From positions 1-64,000 of the IMG/VR virus record IMGVR_UViG_3300018080_000175: a DNA stretch of 64,000 nucleotides. One strand, 5' to 3'. The stretch comes from a virus. The notes under the pieces were generated by a model. The model was not told the DNA's origin and did no database searches. It was given only the letters and a program-made list of their open reading frames with translations. The first letter of the stretch is position 1, and each line of letters opens with the position of its first letter. The position numbers were made by a program, and so were the translations under genes. This document shows positions 1,249-18,314 of this stretch, in pieces.

Positions 1249-1902
1249 ATGGGTAAAAAAATCAAAAACAAAAAAGCCGACAAAAACATTGAGAAAAAAA
1301 TTGAAGTTGTTTTTCTCAGAGAACGGCGATTAACTGTATCTGTTGGAACATCTGCTGAATTCGGCAAAGCAAAAGTGGGTCTGTCTCTTTCTCAGAATTT
1401 GAAAGACGGCGAAGACTCCATGGAAATTGCAGACGGCGTTTATGAAGAACTGGTTGAAAAACTGGAAGAAAAATTTGATGATCTTTGTGAAAAAGTCGGT
1501 GTCGGTGATTCCGATGACGATGAATCCGATGACGATGACGACCAGGATGACGATTCTGATGATGACGATGATGATGACGATGATTCTGGTCAGGACGATG
1601 ACGATGATGACTCCGATGATGATGACGATGATGACTCCGATGATGACGATGATGACTCCGATGATGACGATGATGACTCCGATGATGAAATCACCGAAGA
1701 CGAAATCAAAAAGATGAAAAAAGCCGATCTGATTCAACTGATCAAAGATGAAGAATTGGATGTAAATCCAAAGAAATTCAAAAAGATTGCTGATCTCAGA
1801 ACTGCCGTAATTGATGATATTTTTGATGACGATGATGACGATGATGACGATGATGACTGGGATTCCGATGATGACGATGACGATTGGGGTGATGACGATT
1901 AA
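1249..1902 (+). CDS. Poly-aspartate protein with SAP/HeH-like helical domain
   Basis: 217 residues in three parts. Residues 1-85 are a lysine-rich start followed by a small alpha/beta domain. Residues about 88-145 are almost only Asp and Ser, encoded by GATGAC codon repeats with a unit of about 21 bases. Residues about 148-190 (EDEIKKMKKADLIQLIKDEE onward) resemble the helix-extended-helix SAP/Rho-N type of nucleic-acid binding domain, followed by a second Asp run. It directly follows the recombinase. An acidic tail next to a recombinase recalls single-strand binding proteins, but no OB fold is recognisable, so the role is not assigned. Confidence 0.8.
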   Translation: MGKKIKNKKADKNIEKKIEVVFLRERRLTVSVGTSAEFGKAKVGLSLSQNLKDGEDSMEIADGVYEELVEKLEEKFDDLCEKVGVGDSDDDESDDDDDQDDDSDDDDDDDDDSGQDDDDDDSDDDDDDDSDDDDDDSDDDDDDSDDEITEDEIKKMKKADLIQLIKDEELDVNPKKFKKIADLRTAVIDDIFDDDDDDDDDDDWDSDDDDDDWGDDD

Positions 1903-4455: not shown

Positions 4456-5008
4456 TTTGGCAAGACATCATTTAACAGAAAATGGGTTCAAACTGCTTAT
4501 GAAAATTGAAAGTAAAATGCCGGATATCTGGGACAAACCTTCATCTTCAACTGGAAAGTATCATAAAAAAGCTGACGGATCAGTTCCGTCTATTGCACAC
4601 CATACATATGAAATGTTCTATGCAGGAGCCAAAATAATTCGCATGTTTGGGGGTAAATTAAAATCCACTCAAAACGATGCATTTCTAATGGCTATTGTTT
4701 TGCATGACATCCAAAAATACGGAAAGAAAGGAACAAATCCTCATACAACTCCAAATCATGACAAAACAATGGCAGATTTACTCTTGAAAAACAGGAAAAC
4801 TTTACTGAAACATTTCTCTGAATTAGAAATGGAAATCTTAATCAGTGGTGTTCGTTATCATTCTGGCAGATGGAGCAAAAGCGTGACAAACATGCATGAA
4901 TTTGATTTTTCGGACTATCATCCTGTTGTAATGTTCACTCACATGCTTGATATGATGTCAACTGCCGATGTTCTTCAATTCCCACATGTTGATAATGAGG
5001 GCAGATAA
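4430..5008 (+). CDS. HD-domain metal-dependent phosphohydrolase
   Basis: 192 residues with an HD-type metal site: H57/H58, the H92-D93 doublet in VLHDIQKYG, H110-D111, H144 in RYHSGRW and D180 near the end. HD enzymes hydrolyse nucleotides or nucleotide messengers. The substrate is unknown; the setting among DNA-metabolism genes is compatible with nucleotide cleanup or a host signalling nucleotide. Start at ATG 4430 lies inside the previous gene. Confidence 0.8.
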   Translation: MDYTQAIIDLARHHLTENGFKLLMKIESKMPDIWDKPSSSTGKYHKKADGSVPSIAHHTYEMFYAGAKIIRMFGGKLKSTQNDAFLMAIVLHDIQKYGKKGTNPHTTPNHDKTMADLLLKNRKTLLKHFSELEMEILISGVRYHSGRWSKSVTNMHEFDFSDYHPVVMFTHMLDMMSTADVLQFPHVDNEGR

Positions 5009-5269
5009 TTGGCAAAAATAGAAAGCATAGGACACTTAAAAGAGGATGCATTGCTTGTTACTCCAGAGCAATGCATTAAAAGTGTCCTGAATGATGATCT
5101 GGGAAAACGTGGAGCTTTTAAAAATGGAAAGAAAATCATTGTTATTGCATTGGATGATTCTGACGGAGAATACCAGTTTAGTTTCTCACAAGGTGGATTC
5201 AAAGTGAGTGAGATATTGGCACTTCTATCTGTGGTTAAAAAATACTTTATCAATATGATGGGGTTCTAA
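5009..5269 (+). CDS. Unknown small protein with TTG start
   Basis: 86 residues beginning at TTG 5009, immediately after the HD-gene stop, with GAGG at 4997-5000 as ribosome site. Sequence alternates charged and hydrophobic strands (KKIIVIALDDSDGEYQFSF). No family recognised. Confidence 0.6.
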   Translation: MAKIESIGHLKEDALLVTPEQCIKSVLNDDLGKRGAFKNGKKIIVIALDDSDGEYQFSFSQGGFKVSEILALLSVVKKYFINMMGF

Positions 5270-13005: not shown

Positions 13006-13123
13006 TGAAGAAGTAAATGATTCAATGGAAACATTACATAAAACTTTCCCACTCAACAAGATTTTGTTTCTTCCAAATGACATGGAAATAAAAGTCGTAA
13101 AAATGGAAGAGAAATCGACATGA
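12923..13123 (+). CDS. Unknown small acidic protein
   Basis: 66 residues with GAGGAG upstream of ATG 12923; alternating strands and an acidic helix. Overlaps the SbcC-N start by four bases, so it may be co-translated with it. Confidence 0.55.
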   Translation: MEIKDVLKLKVEKDEVLVIQYDPETLDDEEVNDSMETLHKTFPLNKILFLPNDMEIKVVKMEEKST

Positions 13124-14214
13124 TCAAATCAATAAATACAGAAAATTTTGAAACGCATATTAACACGTCCATTGATTTACACCCAGGCGTTAACACGTTT
13201 GTTGGAGAATCTGATGAAGGCAAATCTGGAATAGTTCGTCAAATAAAATGGAATTCAAAAAACAGACCAAAGGGAGATAGTTACAGAAACGATGCACTTG
13301 ATCCCAAAAAGAAATCCGACAAACTTAAACTGACTCAGGTTAAAATTGATTATGAAGGATCTGGTATTGTTACAAGAGCAAGAGATGGTTTCAAAAGCGG
13401 AGTAAATCATTATCAAATCGGAGTTAAAGAGCCGTTAAGAGCATTGAGGATGGATGTTCCAGATGAAGTCCAAGAACTTACCAGAATGAAAGATGTAAAT
13501 ATTCAGGGACAACATCCAACAGAACAGTATTTCATGCTTGCAGATAAACCAGGTCAAGTAGCAAAACAATTCAACAAAGTTGCTGGATTAACTATAATGG
13601 ATGATGCAATAAAAAGCATAAATTCACAAGTTCGTACCTGCAATACTGAAATTGCTATTACCAAAAAAGAGATCGAAGCAAAAACAAAAGAATTAAAAGA
13701 CACAGAATGGGTGTTGAAAGCTGAAAAACTTGCAGATAAATTATCCAAATATGAAAAGAAACTGAATAAGAAAAAAGCTGAACTGAAAGCCATCGGTGAT
13801 GCCGTTCATCTCATTGAAGAAATTGATAAAAAGTTGAAAAGATTTGATGATATAGGTGATGCAAAAATAAGATTGAAAGAGCTTGAGACTGAAAAGCTGA
13901 ACATAAGCACTAAAGAAAACGACATTGAAGACATAGACAACACAATCCTTGCTATGAAATCAGTCGATACAGCTTTAAAGAATACTGTTAACGTCACTGA
14001 TGCTAAAAAGATGCTCAAATCGCTTGAAACGTTAAGAAGCAATATTGATGAAGACCAAGAAAAAATAGATAATATATCTGATTTGCTGGCAAAGATAAAA
14101 GAAAACACTAAAAAAGAAACCAAAGCAACAATGAAATTGATAGATGCCCAACAAGCTCATCTTAAAATGTGGAGGGAAGAAGAATGCCCTGTATGCGGGA
14201 GATCAGGAAAATAA
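13120..14214 (+). CDS. SbcC/Rad50-like ATPase, N-terminal half ending in the zinc hook
   Basis: 364 residues. Walker A GESDEGKS is at 29-36; a Q-loop region (NIQGQHPTEQYF) lies near 128-139; residues about 160-350 are long coiled coil. The chain stops five residues after CPVCG (C356, C359), the zinc-hook motif normally at the apex of the complete coil. No Walker B or signature motif is present; these are in the gene at 17027-17659. Together the two halves give about 574 residues, close to T4 gp46. With the Mre11-like nuclease at 15.2 kb it should form the end-resection complex. Confidence 0.88.
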   Translation: MIKSINTENFETHINTSIDLHPGVNTFVGESDEGKSGIVRQIKWNSKNRPKGDSYRNDALDPKKKSDKLKLTQVKIDYEGSGIVTRARDGFKSGVNHYQIGVKEPLRALRMDVPDEVQELTRMKDVNIQGQHPTEQYFMLADKPGQVAKQFNKVAGLTIMDDAIKSINSQVRTCNTEIAITKKEIEAKTKELKDTEWVLKAEKLADKLSKYEKKLNKKKAELKAIGDAVHLIEEIDKKLKRFDDIGDAKIRLKELETEKLNISTKENDIEDIDNTILAMKSVDTALKNTVNVTDAKKMLKSLETLRSNIDEDQEKIDNISDLLAKIKENTKKETKATMKLIDAQQAHLKMWREEECPVCGRSGK

Positions 14215-14215
14215 T

Positions 14216-14770
14216 ATGAAGAAACTGTCCTATAATAATTTACATTTAAATTTGAATTATGACCCTTTAACTGGAATTTTTACACGTAAAAAAGCAAATA
14301 CAAATTGTGTTGACCTTGGAGATATTGCTGGTACTAAAAAAACAGACGGGTATATAGAAATTTGGGTAGAAAATGAAAGATATTTAGCTCATATTTTAGC
14401 ATGGTTCTATGTTCATGGGTATTGGTCTGAAAATATGATAGATCATATAGATGGAGTTAAACATCATAATTGGATCGGTAATCTTAGAGAAGTCTCAAAC
14501 CAATGTAATCAACGAAATAGAGGGAACCCTAAAAATAACTCAAGCGGAGTAAAAGGAGTAAGTAGAAATGCATCAAACGGAAACTGGATGAGCTATTTAT
14601 ACATAAAAGGGAAAATAAAAAGATTAGGAAGTTATAAAGAGTTTGATAATGCAGTTTGTGCCAGATTGGCTGGAGAACAATGTGTAGGATGGGAAGGATG
14701 TGATAGTAACAGTCCTGCTTTTTTATATGTAAAGGAAAAAATATGCTCAAGTGGAAGGACGGGAGAATAG
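14216..14770 (+). CDS. HNH endonuclease with AP2-type DNA-binding domain
   Basis: 184 residues from ATG 14216 with AGGA upstream. The HNH core is IDHIDGVKHHNWIGNLREVS with N-x8-N downstream (QCNQRN), and the C-terminal part (GVKGVSRNASNGNW, then LGSYKEFDNAVCARL) is an AP2-like DNA-binding domain. This combination is typical of free-standing homing endonucleases of phages. It begins two bases after the stop of the hook half of SbcC and overlaps the next gene, as expected of a gene that inserted into an operon. Confidence 0.88.
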   Translation: MKKLSYNNLHLNLNYDPLTGIFTRKKANTNCVDLGDIAGTKKTDGYIEIWVENERYLAHILAWFYVHGYWSENMIDHIDGVKHHNWIGNLREVSNQCNQRNRGNPKNNSSGVKGVSRNASNGNWMSYLYIKGKIKRLGSYKEFDNAVCARLAGEQCVGWEGCDSNSPAFLYVKEKICSSGRTGE

Positions 14771-14976
14771 TGGAAACTGTTGACATGTATCGAGTATATA
14801 AAACATGTACAAAATGTGGCAATTGGTATGCTGATATGTGGAGTGAAAATAGATTCATGAAACAAGATGATATTCTCACAACCCCTCCAGAAGAATGCAA
14901 AACATATTATAAGCATTTTACTCATTACAAATGCAGAAATAAAAAATGCAATCACAGATGGTATACAAATCCATAG
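14743..14976 (+). CDS. Zinc-ribbon protein
   Basis: 77 residues. CTKCGNWY and CRNKKCNHRW form a zinc ribbon with a 40-residue insertion. ATG 14743 with AAGGA upstream lies inside the end of the HNH gene. Function unknown. Confidence 0.65.
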   Translation: MLKWKDGRIVETVDMYRVYKTCTKCGNWYADMWSENRFMKQDDILTTPPEECKTYYKHFTHYKCRNKKCNHRWYTNP

Positions 14977-14986
14977 GAGATTAAAA

Positions 14987-15175
14987 ATGATACGCAAAGA
15001 ACTGATTGATCCTTTACATAAAGAGCGTAAAAAACTGTACAAACAAGCGGCCGCTATTGACAAAGCTATCAGAGCGTTGCAGGATTTATGCGAACATGAT
15101 TGGAAAGAAGATGGACATGATTCACATAAAACTCACCACATATGTAAAATATGCAGTAAACAGGAGTCTTGGTAA
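14987..15175 (+). CDS. Small coiled-coil zinc-binding protein
   Basis: 62 residues from ATG 14987 (AGGAG upstream): a basic helix followed by CEHDW and HHICKIC, a possible single zinc site. The stop overlaps the ATG of the SbcD gene. Confidence 0.6.
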   Translation: MIRKELIDPLHKERKKLYKQAAAIDKAIRALQDLCEHDWKEDGHDSHKTHHICKICSKQESW

Positions 15176-16143
15176 TGACAATAAAAATACCTACAAATGA
15201 GGATTTCATAGCTGGTGCTGATCTTCACATTCATTCGAAAGTGCCTGAGAACAGGAAAGGAGATTATTTCGGCCAAGTTATTATGAAATTCTCACATTTA
15301 CTGGCATATACAATTAGATTCTCAGCACCAGGATTACTTGTTGTTGCTGGAGACTTCTTTGATGCCCCCAATGTTCCTTACAAAGTTACCAAGAGAGTCA
15401 TAGAACTGATCAAAGAGAGTGGGATTGAAGTTCTTGTGGTCCCTGGTCAGCATGATCTTAGGTATCACGTATCTGGACTTGATAATACACCACTTGGAAC
15501 TCTTGAAGCGGCAGGGGTTGTCTCTATCCTTTCAAACACATGTAGATATGCCCCAAAAGGAATGAATGGAGTTACATTCATAGGATCTGGATGGAATGAA
15601 GAACCACAAGAGGAAGCTGATGTATTGGTAATGCATAGAATGATTACAAAGAAAGGTGAACTCTGGCCGGGACAAAAAAATTACTCCACTGCTCACGCTA
15701 TTTTAAGAAAATATCCATGGGCTAAGTGTATCATAAGTGGGGACAACCATACTCCACATTCATTGAGAACTGATGGAAAACTTCAAATCAATTGCGGATC
15801 AATGGTTAGATCAACTAAATCACAAATAGGTTATCAGCCAAGATGCTGGAGAGTTGATACTTCTACTTGGAAAGCAAAACCAATAAAAATTCAATGCCTG
15901 TCAGATGAGGAAGTTTTTGATTTCGGAAAAATAGCAATAGAAGAAATAAAAGAGGAATCAAAAAAAGAAGCCGAAAAGAAAATTGCTGAATTTATTGATA
16001 CGCTTCCAAAGAATTCAAAAGAAAGACCTGATTTTAAAAACATTCTCAATAATGTTGTTGCTCATGTTGATCCAAAACAATCAGTGAGAGATATAATTGA
16101 TAACACTATGGAGAGAGTAGGTACTGCAAATGAAAAAGTTTAA
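15175..16143 (+). CDS. SbcD/Mre11-like nuclease (metallophosphoesterase)
   Basis: 322 residues from ATG 15175, eight bases after AGGAG. Metallophosphoesterase motifs in order: ADLHIH (about 15-20), AGDFFDAPN (about 60-68), PGQHD (about 93-97, canonical GNHD), VMHRM, and SGDNHTP (about 185-191, canonical GHxH). It should cut DNA ends together with the Rad50-like ATPase encoded on both sides of it. The last 80 residues are charged and helical, as the Rad50-binding region of Mre11. Confidence 0.87.
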   Translation: MTIKIPTNEDFIAGADLHIHSKVPENRKGDYFGQVIMKFSHLLAYTIRFSAPGLLVVAGDFFDAPNVPYKVTKRVIELIKESGIEVLVVPGQHDLRYHVSGLDNTPLGTLEAAGVVSILSNTCRYAPKGMNGVTFIGSGWNEEPQEEADVLVMHRMITKKGELWPGQKNYSTAHAILRKYPWAKCIISGDNHTPHSLRTDGKLQINCGSMVRSTKSQIGYQPRCWRVDTSTWKAKPIKIQCLSDEEVFDFGKIAIEEIKEESKKEAEKKIAEFIDTLPKNSKERPDFKNILNNVVAHVDPKQSVRDIIDNTMERVGTANEKV

Positions 16144-16312
16144 AATGCAACATCGAGTCATGAAAAAAACGGTAAAAGAATTCTATGAAGACAATCCGCC
16201 AAAATGGATGTTATCCGATGAATTCAAATGGTGGTATGATGATTATGTTTTAAAATTAGAAGTTGGAAAAAGCATCAGAACAGATTTTCAAAATATAACA
16301 AGGATAGAATAA
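16130..16312 (+). CDS. Unknown small basic protein
   Basis: 60 residues starting inside the SbcD gene. Central FYEDNPPKWMLSDEFKWWYDD is aromatic. It ends directly before the next ATG (TAA ATG), so translation is likely coupled. No family recognised. Confidence 0.55.
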   Translation: MKKFKMQHRVMKKTVKEFYEDNPPKWMLSDEFKWWYDDYVLKLEVGKSIRTDFQNITRIE

Positions 16313-16543
16313 ATGGATTTAATTCAAGCAAAGAAAAAAGTGGAAGCGAAAGACAAGGAAAGAAATAAACTTCTTGGTCAAAAAGAAATGTTAATGGATG
16401 GGTTAAAAGAATTGGGATTTAAAACGATTGATGAAGCAAAGAAAACTTCCAAATCGCTTAAAAAGACCGTAGATAAAATGAATACGCATTATGATAAAGG
16501 CGTATCCAAATTTAAAACTCAATTCGGTCATTTGTTGAAATAA
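16313..16543 (+). CDS. Small coiled-coil protein, possible piece of the SbcC coil
   Basis: 76 residues, almost wholly heptad-like and lysine-rich, with a break LKELGFKTIDEAKKTSK and ending KFKTQFGHLLK. Such breaks and endings occur in the descending arm of SbcC/Rad50 coils. It lies between the SbcD gene and the ATPase C-terminal half, whose own coil is short, so it may supply part of the missing arm. That role is inference. Confidence 0.6.
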   Translation: MDLIQAKKKVEAKDKERNKLLGQKEMLMDGLKELGFKTIDEAKKTSKSLKKTVDKMNTHYDKGVSKFKTQFGHLLK

Positions 16544-16587
16544 ATTTTATAACATATAAAGTGGAATTTCAAAGGAGATAGAATAGC

Positions 16588-16977
16588 ATGAAAAAACATA
16601 TTCAAGAAATGGAAAATAATACAGATTTATGGCCGTGGTATTGGCGGGCTGTCGGAGAGAAATGCTACGCCTTTGATGTCGTAGAAGCTTTTCCTATGTG
16701 TGAATCAGATCCAGTTCCAAAACCAGGATCAAAACTTGAACTCTCAGAAGACGATAATGACGGAATTGTATGGGTTGGGGAGAATGGAACCAACATGATA
16801 ATTAATGGGTATATTGCCGGAATAGAGCAACAAAATGGGGATACAATATGTAGTTTTATTGCTGCTGCCCATGCTCATTTGTTGATAAATGTTTCTGAGT
16901 GCGATTACTGTGAACGCTACAAAGAACATCTCCCAAATTCAAACTATTGTGGTCAATGTGGCAAAAAGTTTGAGTAA
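16588..16977 (+). CDS. Unknown protein with C-terminal zinc ribbon
   Basis: 129 residues. Main part beta-rich (DGIVWVGENGTNMIINGYIAG); the end has CDYCERY and CGQCGKKFE, a zinc ribbon. AAAGGAG lies before ATG 16588. Function unknown; it interrupts the SbcC/SbcD cluster. Confidence 0.65.
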   Translation: MKKHIQEMENNTDLWPWYWRAVGEKCYAFDVVEAFPMCESDPVPKPGSKLELSEDDNDGIVWVGENGTNMIINGYIAGIEQQNGDTICSFIAAAHAHLLINVSECDYCERYKEHLPNSNYCGQCGKKFE

Positions 16978-17026
16978 CGATAGTAATACATAAATCATAC
17001 CAGATATCAAAAAACTTAAACAGGAA

Positions 17027-17659
17027 TTGACAAATCTTGGGATGGGACAAAGTGTGAAAAAATTATTAGAAAACCTAAACGACAAAATATTGGATAGAAA
17101 AACCAATCAAAAAATTCTTGAGCTTCACACGGATAAAGTTGAAAGTCTTTTATTACATCATGAAGACTTAGAAGAAGCAAGAGTTATTTTTCAAAAAGCA
17201 TCACAGGTAACTCAAACTCAATTAGCCGAACAAGTCTCAAATATTGTATCAAGTGCTTTGGCCGCAGTATTCTATGAACCTTATAAATTTGTAGTTGAAT
17301 TTGTATCAAGAAGAAATACCACAGAATGCGATCTAACATTCGAAAAAAACGGAAAACAAAAATCCCCTCTCGCTTCTTGTGGGTACGGTGCCGCTGATAT
17401 TGCTTCTCTGGCACTTAGAGTTGCTTACTGGAAACTTGACGGAGAAGCAAGAAATGTATTAGTACTTGATGAACCTCTTCGCAATCTTGATGTTTTTAAA
17501 CAACCGCTTGCTTCAATGATGATAAAAAACCTTTCCAAAATGCCAGGAGGACTCCAATTTATTATTGTAACGCATCAAAAAGCTCTTGCCGAATCTGCTG
17601 ATAAGAAGTTTAGTGTTGTTAAAGAAAACGAGGTAAGTTATGTAACAGAACAGAAATAA
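17027..17659 (+). CDS. SbcC/Rad50-like ATPase, C-terminal half
   Basis: 210 residues as read from TTG 17027. A short coiled coil (1-75) is followed by the ABC signature region ASCGYGAADIASLALRVA (116-133), Walker B VLVLDEP (144-150), D-loop LRNLD and switch His 183 in IIVTHQ. No Walker A or CxxC is present. It should assemble with the half at 13.1 kb. Coil-like coding continues upstream in frame to a stop at 16991-16993 with no ATG or GTG, so the start codon is uncertain; ATG 17042 is a poor alternative. Confidence 0.82.
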   Translation: MTNLGMGQSVKKLLENLNDKILDRKTNQKILELHTDKVESLLLHHEDLEEARVIFQKASQVTQTQLAEQVSNIVSSALAAVFYEPYKFVVEFVSRRNTTECDLTFEKNGKQKSPLASCGYGAADIASLALRVAYWKLDGEARNVLVLDEPLRNLDVFKQPLASMMIKNLSKMPGGLQFIIVTHQKALAESADKKFSVVKENEVSYVTEQK

Positions 17660-17662
17660 TTC

Positions 17663-17691
17663 TTGATTTTTAGTTCATCTAATAATATACT
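17663..17691 (+). promoter_or_regulatory. Sigma70-type promoter of the second HNH gene
   Basis: TTGATT (17663-17668), 17-base spacer, TATACT (17686-17691), about 30 bases before the HNH start. It lets the endonuclease be transcribed independently of the operon. Confidence 0.65.
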
Positions 17692-17708
17692 ACTTGATGA
17701 ACTAAAAA
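17667..17708. promoter_or_regulatory. 13-bp inverted repeat flanking the -10 (operator candidate)
   Basis: TTTTTAGTTCATC and GATGAACTAAAAA are perfect inverted copies separated by 16 bases that contain the -10 box. A dimeric repressor bound here would block the promoter. Neither arm is followed by a T tract suited to termination. Confidence 0.55.
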
Positions 17709-17720
17709 ATAGGAGTTAAG

Positions 17721-18314
17721 ATGAAGAAAATAATTATTGTTCCAAAATGTGAGTGTGGATGTGGTAAAAGAGTTACCTGGAATAAACGAAAAAAAGAATG
17801 GAATAAACGACTTGTAGGACATCATGAACGAACTAAGGAAATGAGAAAGCAACTAAGCAATTCCCTAAAAAAAAGTAGTTTTTTCCACACGTATAATAAA
17901 ACAAAAGAACACTCCGAAAAAGTAATAAAAAGCAATCAAAATAGAATTGTTTCAGAATTAACCAAAGAAAAAATATCAACAACATTGACAGGCAGAATAC
18001 AATCAAAAGAATCAAACATTAAACGAAGTATTACAGCAATTGATAATGGTTCTCATAGAGGGAAAAATAACGCCTCATGGAAAGGAGGGATATCTCCCAG
18101 AAAGGATATAGGAGAATGGACAAAAATCAGTAAAGAAATTAAAAAACGAGATAATTACACCTGCAAAAAATGTGGAACACAAAAGAATATAGATGTCCAC
18201 CATATTGATTTTGATAAACATAATCACGAACCATTGAATTTAATTTCTCTTTGCAGAAAATGTCATATGAAAAAACACAAAGAGAATACTCAAAAGGAGA
18301 TAGAAAATGCCTGA
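17721..18314 (+). CDS. HNH homing-type endonuclease with NUMOD-like N-terminus
   Basis: 197 residues. The start CECGCGKRVTW with repeated basic segments (MRKQLSNSLKK and similar) resembles NUMOD-type DNA-binding modules. The C-terminus is a zinc-braced HNH: CKKCG, VHHIDFDKHNH, N-x-x-SLCRKCH. It has its own promoter and is followed at once by an operon gene. It sits right after the SbcC C-terminal half, so the two HNH genes bracket the split SbcC/SbcD cluster. Confidence 0.85.
   Translation: MKKIIIVPKCECGCGKRVTWNKRKKEWNKRLVGHHERTKEMRKQLSNSLKKSSFFHTYNKTKEHSEKVIKSNQNRIVSELTKEKISTTLTGRIQSKESNIKRSITAIDNGSHRGKNNASWKGGISPRKDIGEWTKISKEIKKRDNYTCKKCGTQKNIDVHHIDFDKHNHEPLNLISLCRKCHMKKHKENTQKEIENA

What the first reader, a model, noticed from the sequence alone, without database searches (positions are those of the whole stretch)
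13120..17659. Rad50/SbcC-like ATPase split at its zinc hook, with the nuclease gene between the halves
The half at 13120-14214 has Walker A and the ascending coil and ends five residues after the CPVCG hook. The half at 17027-17659 has signature motif, Walker B and switch His but no Walker A. The SbcD/Mre11 gene and a 76-residue coil (16313-16543) lie between. Each half lacks what the other has and the sum is close to T4 gp46, so the ATPase should work as a two- or three-chain complex. In Rad50/SbcC the apex joins the two arms covalently; here the joint is broken exactly there.
Basis: partly seen in the sequence, partly recalled or inferred. Interest (0 to 1): 0.85.

Follow-up and report, generated by a model that had tools for sequence, protein, structure and literature searches.

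The report
Phage Rad50 made in three pieces
This phage, and more than a hundred others plus several bacterial megaplasmids, make the DNA-repair motor Rad50 (SbcC) not as one long protein but as separate N-terminal, small hairpin and C-terminal chains, nearly always cut just after the zinc hook at the far tip of its arm, which suggests that the covalent tip thought to define this machine is dispensable in nature.

Summary
In detail: one ATPase half (13120-14214) carries Walker A and ends at CPVCG-RSGK; the other (about 17054-17659) carries the signature position, Walker B and switch His. SbcD and a 76-aa protein lie between; neither half has another copy. It is not decay. The same split recurs in relatives without the HNH gene, in Bacillus phage vB_BboS-125, a cyanophage and Bacillota megaplasmids. 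In IMG/VR, 82/82 usable loci carry N-half, SbcD and C-half; about 80 carry the small gene. In 109 of 111 N-halves a CxxC lies 3-28 residues from the C-terminus; it never occurs in the other chains. In a Microbacterium phage and a Jeotgalibacillus plasmid the halves are unlinked, so they must meet as proteins. Profiles of the halves match complementary parts of one solved Rad50 head. Corrections: the cut lies just after the hook hairpin; the 76-aa protein is predicted to be a helical hairpin; the N arm varies in ~47-residue steps while the other chains stay constant, so it is not simply a Rad50 arm cut at its apex. The HNH gene is a local mobile insertion. No description found in the open-access literature searched. 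Assembly and activity remain inferred. New variant of Mre11-Rad50.

The parts
13120..14214 (+). Rad50/SbcC N-half (Walker A lobe, N-terminal arm of three ~47-aa repeats, complete zinc-hook hairpin ECPVCGRSGK at the C-terminus)
   Evidence: phrog_16465 1.1e-22; family profile hits Rad50 3aux residues 3-220 at 3.8e-17; model matches the Rad50 N-segment chains 1ii8_A, 3qkr_A, 1f2t_A; repeats at coil positions 31, 78, 125
15175..16143 (+). SbcD/Mre11-like metallophosphoesterase (GNH motif reads GQH, GHxH reads GDNH)
   Evidence: Metallophos 6.6e-6, phrog_100 1.3e-5; present in 82/82 loci; metal-site residues tabulated
16313..16543 (+). K: 76-aa third chain, predicted helical hairpin, directly upstream of the C-half in most relatives
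17054..17659 (+). Rad50/SbcC C-half (short descending arm, signature position, Walker B, switch His); start GTG 17054 preferred, ATG 17042 or TTG 17027 not excluded
   Evidence: phrog_15167 1.1e-20; family profile hits Rad50 3aux residues 172-368 at 2.2e-15
14216..14770 (+). HNH/AP2 homing-type endonuclease gene inserted at the hook codons; a copy of the hook end remains at its 3' tail (not part of the machine)
   Evidence: HNH_3 5e-10; alignment of both junctions with L003, which lacks the insertion
14743..14976 (+). zinc-ribbon ORF whose start overlaps the hook codons in relative L003; displaced downstream here by the HNH insertion
17657..17718 (+). inverted repeat (TTTTTAGTTCATC / GATGAACTAAAAA), likely transcription terminator ending the cassette
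   Evidence: read from sequence; one search reports it only as a chance hit to a hairpin model
17721..18314 (+). second HNH gene, directly behind the cassette
   Evidence: HNH 0.0014, phrog_8446 2.4e-11

Best explanation
A functional Mre11-Rad50 (SbcCD, T4 gp47-gp46 type) complex whose Rad50 is encoded as three chains. The N-half (lobe I, arm, zinc-hook hairpin) and the C-half (lobe II with a short descending arm) come together as proteins to form one ABC ATPase head; two such heads sandwich ATP and carry the SbcD dimer, which processes DNA ends and recombination intermediates for the phage. Two N-chains meet tip to tip through their CPxC hairpins on one Zn ion, so the complex keeps hook-mediated dimerisation although nothing covalent joins the tip to the C-half. 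K, a small helical hairpin made from the cistron next to the C-half, most likely packs on the arm and takes the place of the missing descending helix. Shown here: the sequence anatomy, conservation, co-occurrence, unlinked halves, complementary homology to one Rad50 head, intact catalytic residues. Inferred: assembly, ATPase and nuclease activity, Zn binding, the role of K. The split is old; the HNH gene seen here is a later, local insertion at the conserved hook codons.
For: Both halves single-copy. N profile matches 3aux residues 3-220 (3.8e-17) and C profile matches residues 172-368 of the same chain (2.2e-15). Model of the N-half matches the separately expressed Rad50 N-segments 1ii8_A, 3qkr_A, 1f2t_A. 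Walker A Lys in 107/107 aligned N-halves, Walker B Asp and Glu in 98/98 C-halves. Same split without HNH in L003 and L004, in vB_BboS-125 and cyanophage Mvi-JY20. 82/82 loci have N, SbcD and C; K in 70 by profile and about 10 more by eye. A CxxC lies 3-28 aa from the end in 109/111 N-halves; 0/98 C and 0/90 K contain one. Halves unlinked in Microbacterium phage Magritte and the Jeotgalibacillus plasmid. SbcD is fused to the N-half in Geobacillus, Paenibacillus, Brevibacillus, Aneurinibacillus and Jeotgalibacillus plasmids, still ending at the hook. Pairwise distances of N, C, D, K agree (r 0.80-0.90; best of 500 shuffles about 0.10). Precedents: a 14-residue hook hairpin is the first stabilising unit of the Zn hook (PMC9569753); split phage NrdA and gp43 are active (PMC2988022).
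Against: No complex could be modelled and nothing is biochemical. N-arm length is not matched by K plus C, so the arm geometry is unknown. In Magritte the N-half has no CxxC, and L010 has only a degenerate one, so the hook is not always kept. In the window clade two SbcD metal-site positions differ from the canonical motif. The K model has no match among solved structures, so its membership of the complex rests on synteny and co-variation.
Confidence: 0.85

Rival explanations
1. Decayed remnant of a single gp46/SbcC gene, broken recently by the homing endonuclease.
For: An HNH gene sits exactly at the break with a duplicated hook end; HNH insertion is a known way to split phage genes (PMC2988022).
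Against: Relatives without the HNH are split at the same place; catalytic residues are conserved in all aligned members; no single-chain version was found among more than 100 loci.
Confidence: 0.03
2. One protein after all: the pieces are joined by RNA splicing, trans-splicing, an intein or frameshifting.
For: Phage genes are often interrupted by introns that carry HNH genes.
Against: No intron family in Rfam over the region; a whole SbcD gene lies between; in Magritte the halves are about 93 kb apart in the record and in Jeotgalibacillus about 75 kb; the stop follows the hook by a short distance in 109/111 members; C-halves have their own starts, often overlapping K.
Confidence: 0.03
3. The halves assemble, but the machine is not a hooked Rad50: the N arm folds back on itself in ~47-aa helices or pairs with the other N arm as a parallel rod, K caps the head or the tip, and the CPxC site is a clasp rather than a ring-closing hook.
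For: N-arm lengths step by about 47 aa while K and C arm are nearly constant; repeat spacing 47-49 where detected; helix breaks at 195 and 242-244 in the model; K is predicted as a hairpin.
Against: Arms with 3, 4, 5, 6 or 7 repeat lengths would put the hook alternately near and far from the head if each repeat turned back; the last 109 residues are modelled as one helix; no coordinates or multimer model to decide.
Confidence: 0.35
4. K is an unrelated small protein (for example a regulator or inhibitor) that merely shares the operon.
For: No sequence or fold match to Rad50 coils.
Against: Found in about 80 of 82 loci, directly upstream of the C-half in most of them, with 31 of 70 overlapping it, in both gene orders and on plasmids; its distances track those of N, C and D.
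Confidence: 0.2

Closest known systems
T4 gp46/gp47 (SbcCD of myoviruses)
   Same: Phage Mre11-Rad50 pair with CxxC hook, neighbouring genes, recombination context
   Different: gp46 is one chain of 560 aa with CPTC at residue 288, about the middle; here three chains, the hook at the end of the first
Archaeal/eukaryotic Rad50-Mre11 (e.g. M. jannaschii 3aux, P. furiosus 1ii8)
   Same: ABC head built from an N and a C segment, zinc hook, SbcD/Mre11 partner; 1f2t and 1ii8 are structures with N and C segments as separate chains A and B
   Different: In nature a single chain joined by a long antiparallel coiled coil; here the break is natural and conserved
Aeh1 split NrdA and Aeromonas phage 25 gp43A/B (genes in pieces, PMC2988022)
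   Same: Phage enzyme in two chains, with a homing endonuclease at or near the break
   Different: Those are reported as insertions into genes that are contiguous elsewhere; here the split is the rule in a family and mostly has no endonuclease at the break
PHROG families 16465 ('exonuclease'), 18563 (unknown), 15167 ('ATPase')
   Same: They hold the three chains (18563 matched 11 of 65 K proteins)
   Different: Listed as separate families; nothing in the entries connects them as one machine

Membership tests
Rad50/SbcC | Walker A lobe I of an ABC-SMC head | tested here: met
   Profile to 3aux 3-220, 3.8e-17; Lys conserved 107/107
Rad50/SbcC | Signature, Walker B and switch His in lobe II | tested here: met
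   Profile to 3aux 172-368, 2.2e-15; Asp and Glu 98/98, His 90/98; signature degenerate (xxGGG rather than SGGE)
Rad50/SbcC | CxxC zinc hook | tested here: met
   CxxC 3-28 aa from the N-half C-terminus in 109/111; Zn binding itself not testable here; absent in Magritte
Rad50/SbcC | Both lobes in one polypeptide joined through the hook | tested here: not met
   Separate genes in all loci, unlinked in two records
Rad50/SbcC | Ascending and descending arm of matching length | tested here: not met
   N arm 140-344 aa; K about 80 and C arm about 70 in most; correlation with N arm -0.16 and 0.31
Rad50/SbcC | Linked Mre11/SbcD nuclease | tested here: met
   82/82 loci; fused to the N-half on plasmids
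Rad50/SbcC | ATP-dependent dimerisation, DNA tethering, nuclease activity | not testable with these tools
   Needs purified proteins
SbcD/Mre11 | DxH, GD, GNH(D/E), H, GHxH metal motifs | tested here: inconclusive
   DxH, GD, motif-IV H and last H kept in all aligned; GNH is GQH in 50/108 and first H of GHxH is Asp in 62/108, including the window
Gene split by a homing endonuclease (Aeh1 NrdA type) | Endonuclease at the break while relatives lacking it are intact | tested here: not met
   HNH at the break here and an AP2 gene in vB_BboS-125, but relatives lacking it are split too
Group I/II intron or intein | Intron RNA or splicing domain joining the exons | tested here: not met
   Rfam scan without any intron match; no intein domain in the Pfam scan

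The most novel reading that the evidence does not exclude
A Rad50 without a closed arm: the two N-chains form a zinc-clasped rod of modular length (whole ~47-aa repeats) that carries the N lobes of the ATPase heads, while C-half and K are exchangeable lids, so the complex can open at the head-arm junction or at the tip in a way that a covalent Rad50 cannot, for example to load on or let go of DNA during phage replication.
Probability: 0.3. Interest if true: 0.85.

Novelty: new variant of a known kind. Interest (0 to 1): 0.75.

Why it matters
Models of Mre11-Rad50 and SMC machines rest on a covalent path from head to hook and back (long-range signalling from hook to ATPase, ring closure). A natural, widespread family that has cut this path directly behind the hook gives a direct test of which functions need it. 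It also offers a ready-made split Rad50 in which arm, hook and heads can be swapped independently, explains three unconnected PHROG families as one machine, and shows that phage annotation misses SbcC when it is in pieces.

Tried and rejected
Rfam scan for an intron: nothing. Protein searches of GenBank phages with the window halves: only vB_BboS-125; Magritte and Mvi-JY20 came with other family members. The genome-contig scan found one contig only, a phage contig binned into Ca. Tenebribacter; A5 was too diverse to scan with. K against the PDB by profile gave only generic coiled coils and by fold nothing. T4 gp46 against the family profiles: only weak coil-level matches. HNH at the break as the general cause of the split: considered and rejected, since HNH_3 was found in only 6 of 66 intervening proteins scanned and relatives without it are split. 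Model coordinates could not be read, so hairpin versus kink at N residues 242-244 stayed open. Two repeat-profile scripts failed on an option clash. Literature searches for a natural split Rad50/SbcC found none; the library is open-access only.
Full report
Observation. The 66.9-kb virus record carries a tailed-phage genome. From phrog hits and from reading the sequence it has a RecA-like protein, nuclease, ligase, dCMP deaminase, dNMP kinase and thymidylate synthase on the plus strand, and terminase, portal and tail genes on the minus strand. At 13120-14214 a 364-aa protein with Walker A and a long coil ends ECPVCGRSGK. At about 17054-17659 a second protein has the signature position, Walker B and switch His. 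SbcD (15175-16143) and a 76-aa protein, here called K (16313-16543), lie between. Each half is single-copy in the record.

The split is conserved. Two IMG/VR relatives, L003 and L004, have N-halves of exactly 364 aa ending CPTCGRTGK and CPVCGRSGL, then SbcD, a 76-aa K and a C-half of 205-208 aa, with no HNH between N-half and SbcD. Bacillus phage vB_BboS-125 has gp32 (ends GGICPLCEQTHKGGGC), an AP2 gene, a 78-aa coil, gp35 and an unannotated SbcD. Profile searches over 156 records gave 111 non-identical complete N-halves. In 109 the last CxxC lies 3-28 residues before the stop; L010 has a degenerate tip, and one record gives a CxxC only far from the end. None of 98 C-halves or 90 K proteins has a CxxC. 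Loci were picked by matches near the N-terminus of the N-half or in the C-half, not by the tail, so this is not a selection effect. Of 82 loci with a complete N-half and at least 4 kb downstream, all have SbcD and a C-half and 70 have K by profile; about ten more have a K-like gene just upstream of the C-half. Gene order is N-D-K-C in 49 and N-K-C-D in 21.

The halves act in trans. In Microbacterium phage Magritte the C-half is gene 2, K-like gp245 is at 127 kb and the N-half gp155 at 93.8 kb; in the Jeotgalibacillus plasmid N and C are about 75 kb apart. This excludes splicing and frameshifting as general explanations, and Rfam shows no intron here. On Geobacillus, Paenibacillus, Brevibacillus, Aneurinibacillus and Jeotgalibacillus plasmids SbcD is fused in front of the N-half, and the fusion still ends 22-26 residues from the start of the hook CxxC. 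That ties SbcD and N-half to one complex.

The halves make one Rad50 head. The N profile matches residues 3-220 and the C profile residues 172-368 of the same solved Rad50, 3aux. The AlphaFold model of the N-half (mean pLDDT 86.6) best matches the Rad50 N segments 1ii8_A, 3qkr_A and, fourth, 1f2t_A, structures in which N and C segments are separate chains. Walker A Lys is present in every aligned N-half, Walker B Asp-Glu in every C-half. Pairwise distances of N, C, D and K over 76 loci correlate at 0.80-0.90, far above label shuffles; shared descent of the operon explains much of this.

Where the cut lies. The model places a beta bridge between residues 355 and 362 around C356-C359, so the N-chain seems to keep the whole minimal hook hairpin. 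Published work finds that a 14-residue CxxC hairpin is the first major stabilising unit of the P. furiosus zinc hook and that the two N-terminal helices contact each other near it (PMC9569753). Two N-chains could thus still dimerise through Zn. This is inference; Zn binding was not tested.

What does not fit a simply cut Rad50 arm. N-arm lengths cluster near 146, 193, 241, 296 and 343 residues, and hydrophobic autocorrelation is highest at lag 47; a repeat profile finds spacing 47-49 for most neighbouring repeats it detects. K (about 80) and the C arm (about 70) do not change with it. K is predicted as a two-helix hairpin with pLDDT 96. T4 gp46 has its hook near the middle. So part of the N arm must pair with itself, with the second N arm or with something unknown.

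The HNH gene. In L003 the zinc-ribbon ORF starts inside the hook codons (ATGCCCAACTTGTGGAAGGACGGGAAAATAG). In the window the HNH gene sits at this junction; upstream is a diverged hook end (TGCCCTGTATGCGGGAGATCAGGAAAATAA), downstream the original-like ATGCTCAAGTGGAAGGACGGGAGAATAG. The simplest reading is a local mobile insertion with about 30 bases present on both sides, keeping both neighbours readable. It did not cause the split, since L003 and L004 are split without it. Whether an older insertion caused the ancestral split is unknown.

Novelty. Searches of the open-access library for a naturally split Rad50 or SbcC found none. The vB_BboS-125 genome paper does not mention SbcC. The jumbo-phage survey describes SbcC as near universal; the passages found mention splitting only for DNA polymerase III. 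PHROGs keeps the three chains as unconnected families. Subscription papers could not be checked. I rate it a new variant of Mre11-Rad50.

Noticed in passing
window 15175-16143 and SbcD of relatives: In about half the family the SbcD metal motif GNH reads GQH (50/108) and the first His of GHxH is Asp (62/108); the nuclease site may bind metal differently.
   Followed up: partly
N-halves of the family; window residues about 190-330 of the 13120-14214 protein: The arm of the N-half is built of ~47-aa repeats and varies in length by whole repeats.
   Followed up: partly
L027:5048-7171; plasmid loci L160, L161, L162, L165, L169: Natural SbcD-Rad50N fusions of about 700-940 aa that still stop at the zinc hook.
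   Followed up: partly
N-half tails of the Bacillus clade (e.g. L126, L041, L032): Short tails after CPLC end in His-rich strings such as EHSH, VHAH, THSH, possibly extra metal ligands.
   Followed up: no
window 14216-14770 and 17721-18314; L004:1649-2200 and 4544-5086; L055:10643-11182: HNH cassettes, several of them related, sit at different junctions of this gene cluster in different relatives.
   Followed up: no
window 1249-1902: 217-aa protein with very long runs of aspartate and serine.
   Followed up: no
L166:4001-5053 (Microbacterium phage Magritte gp155): N-half without any CxxC, in a phage whose pieces are scattered; no SbcD was seen near them.
   Followed up: no
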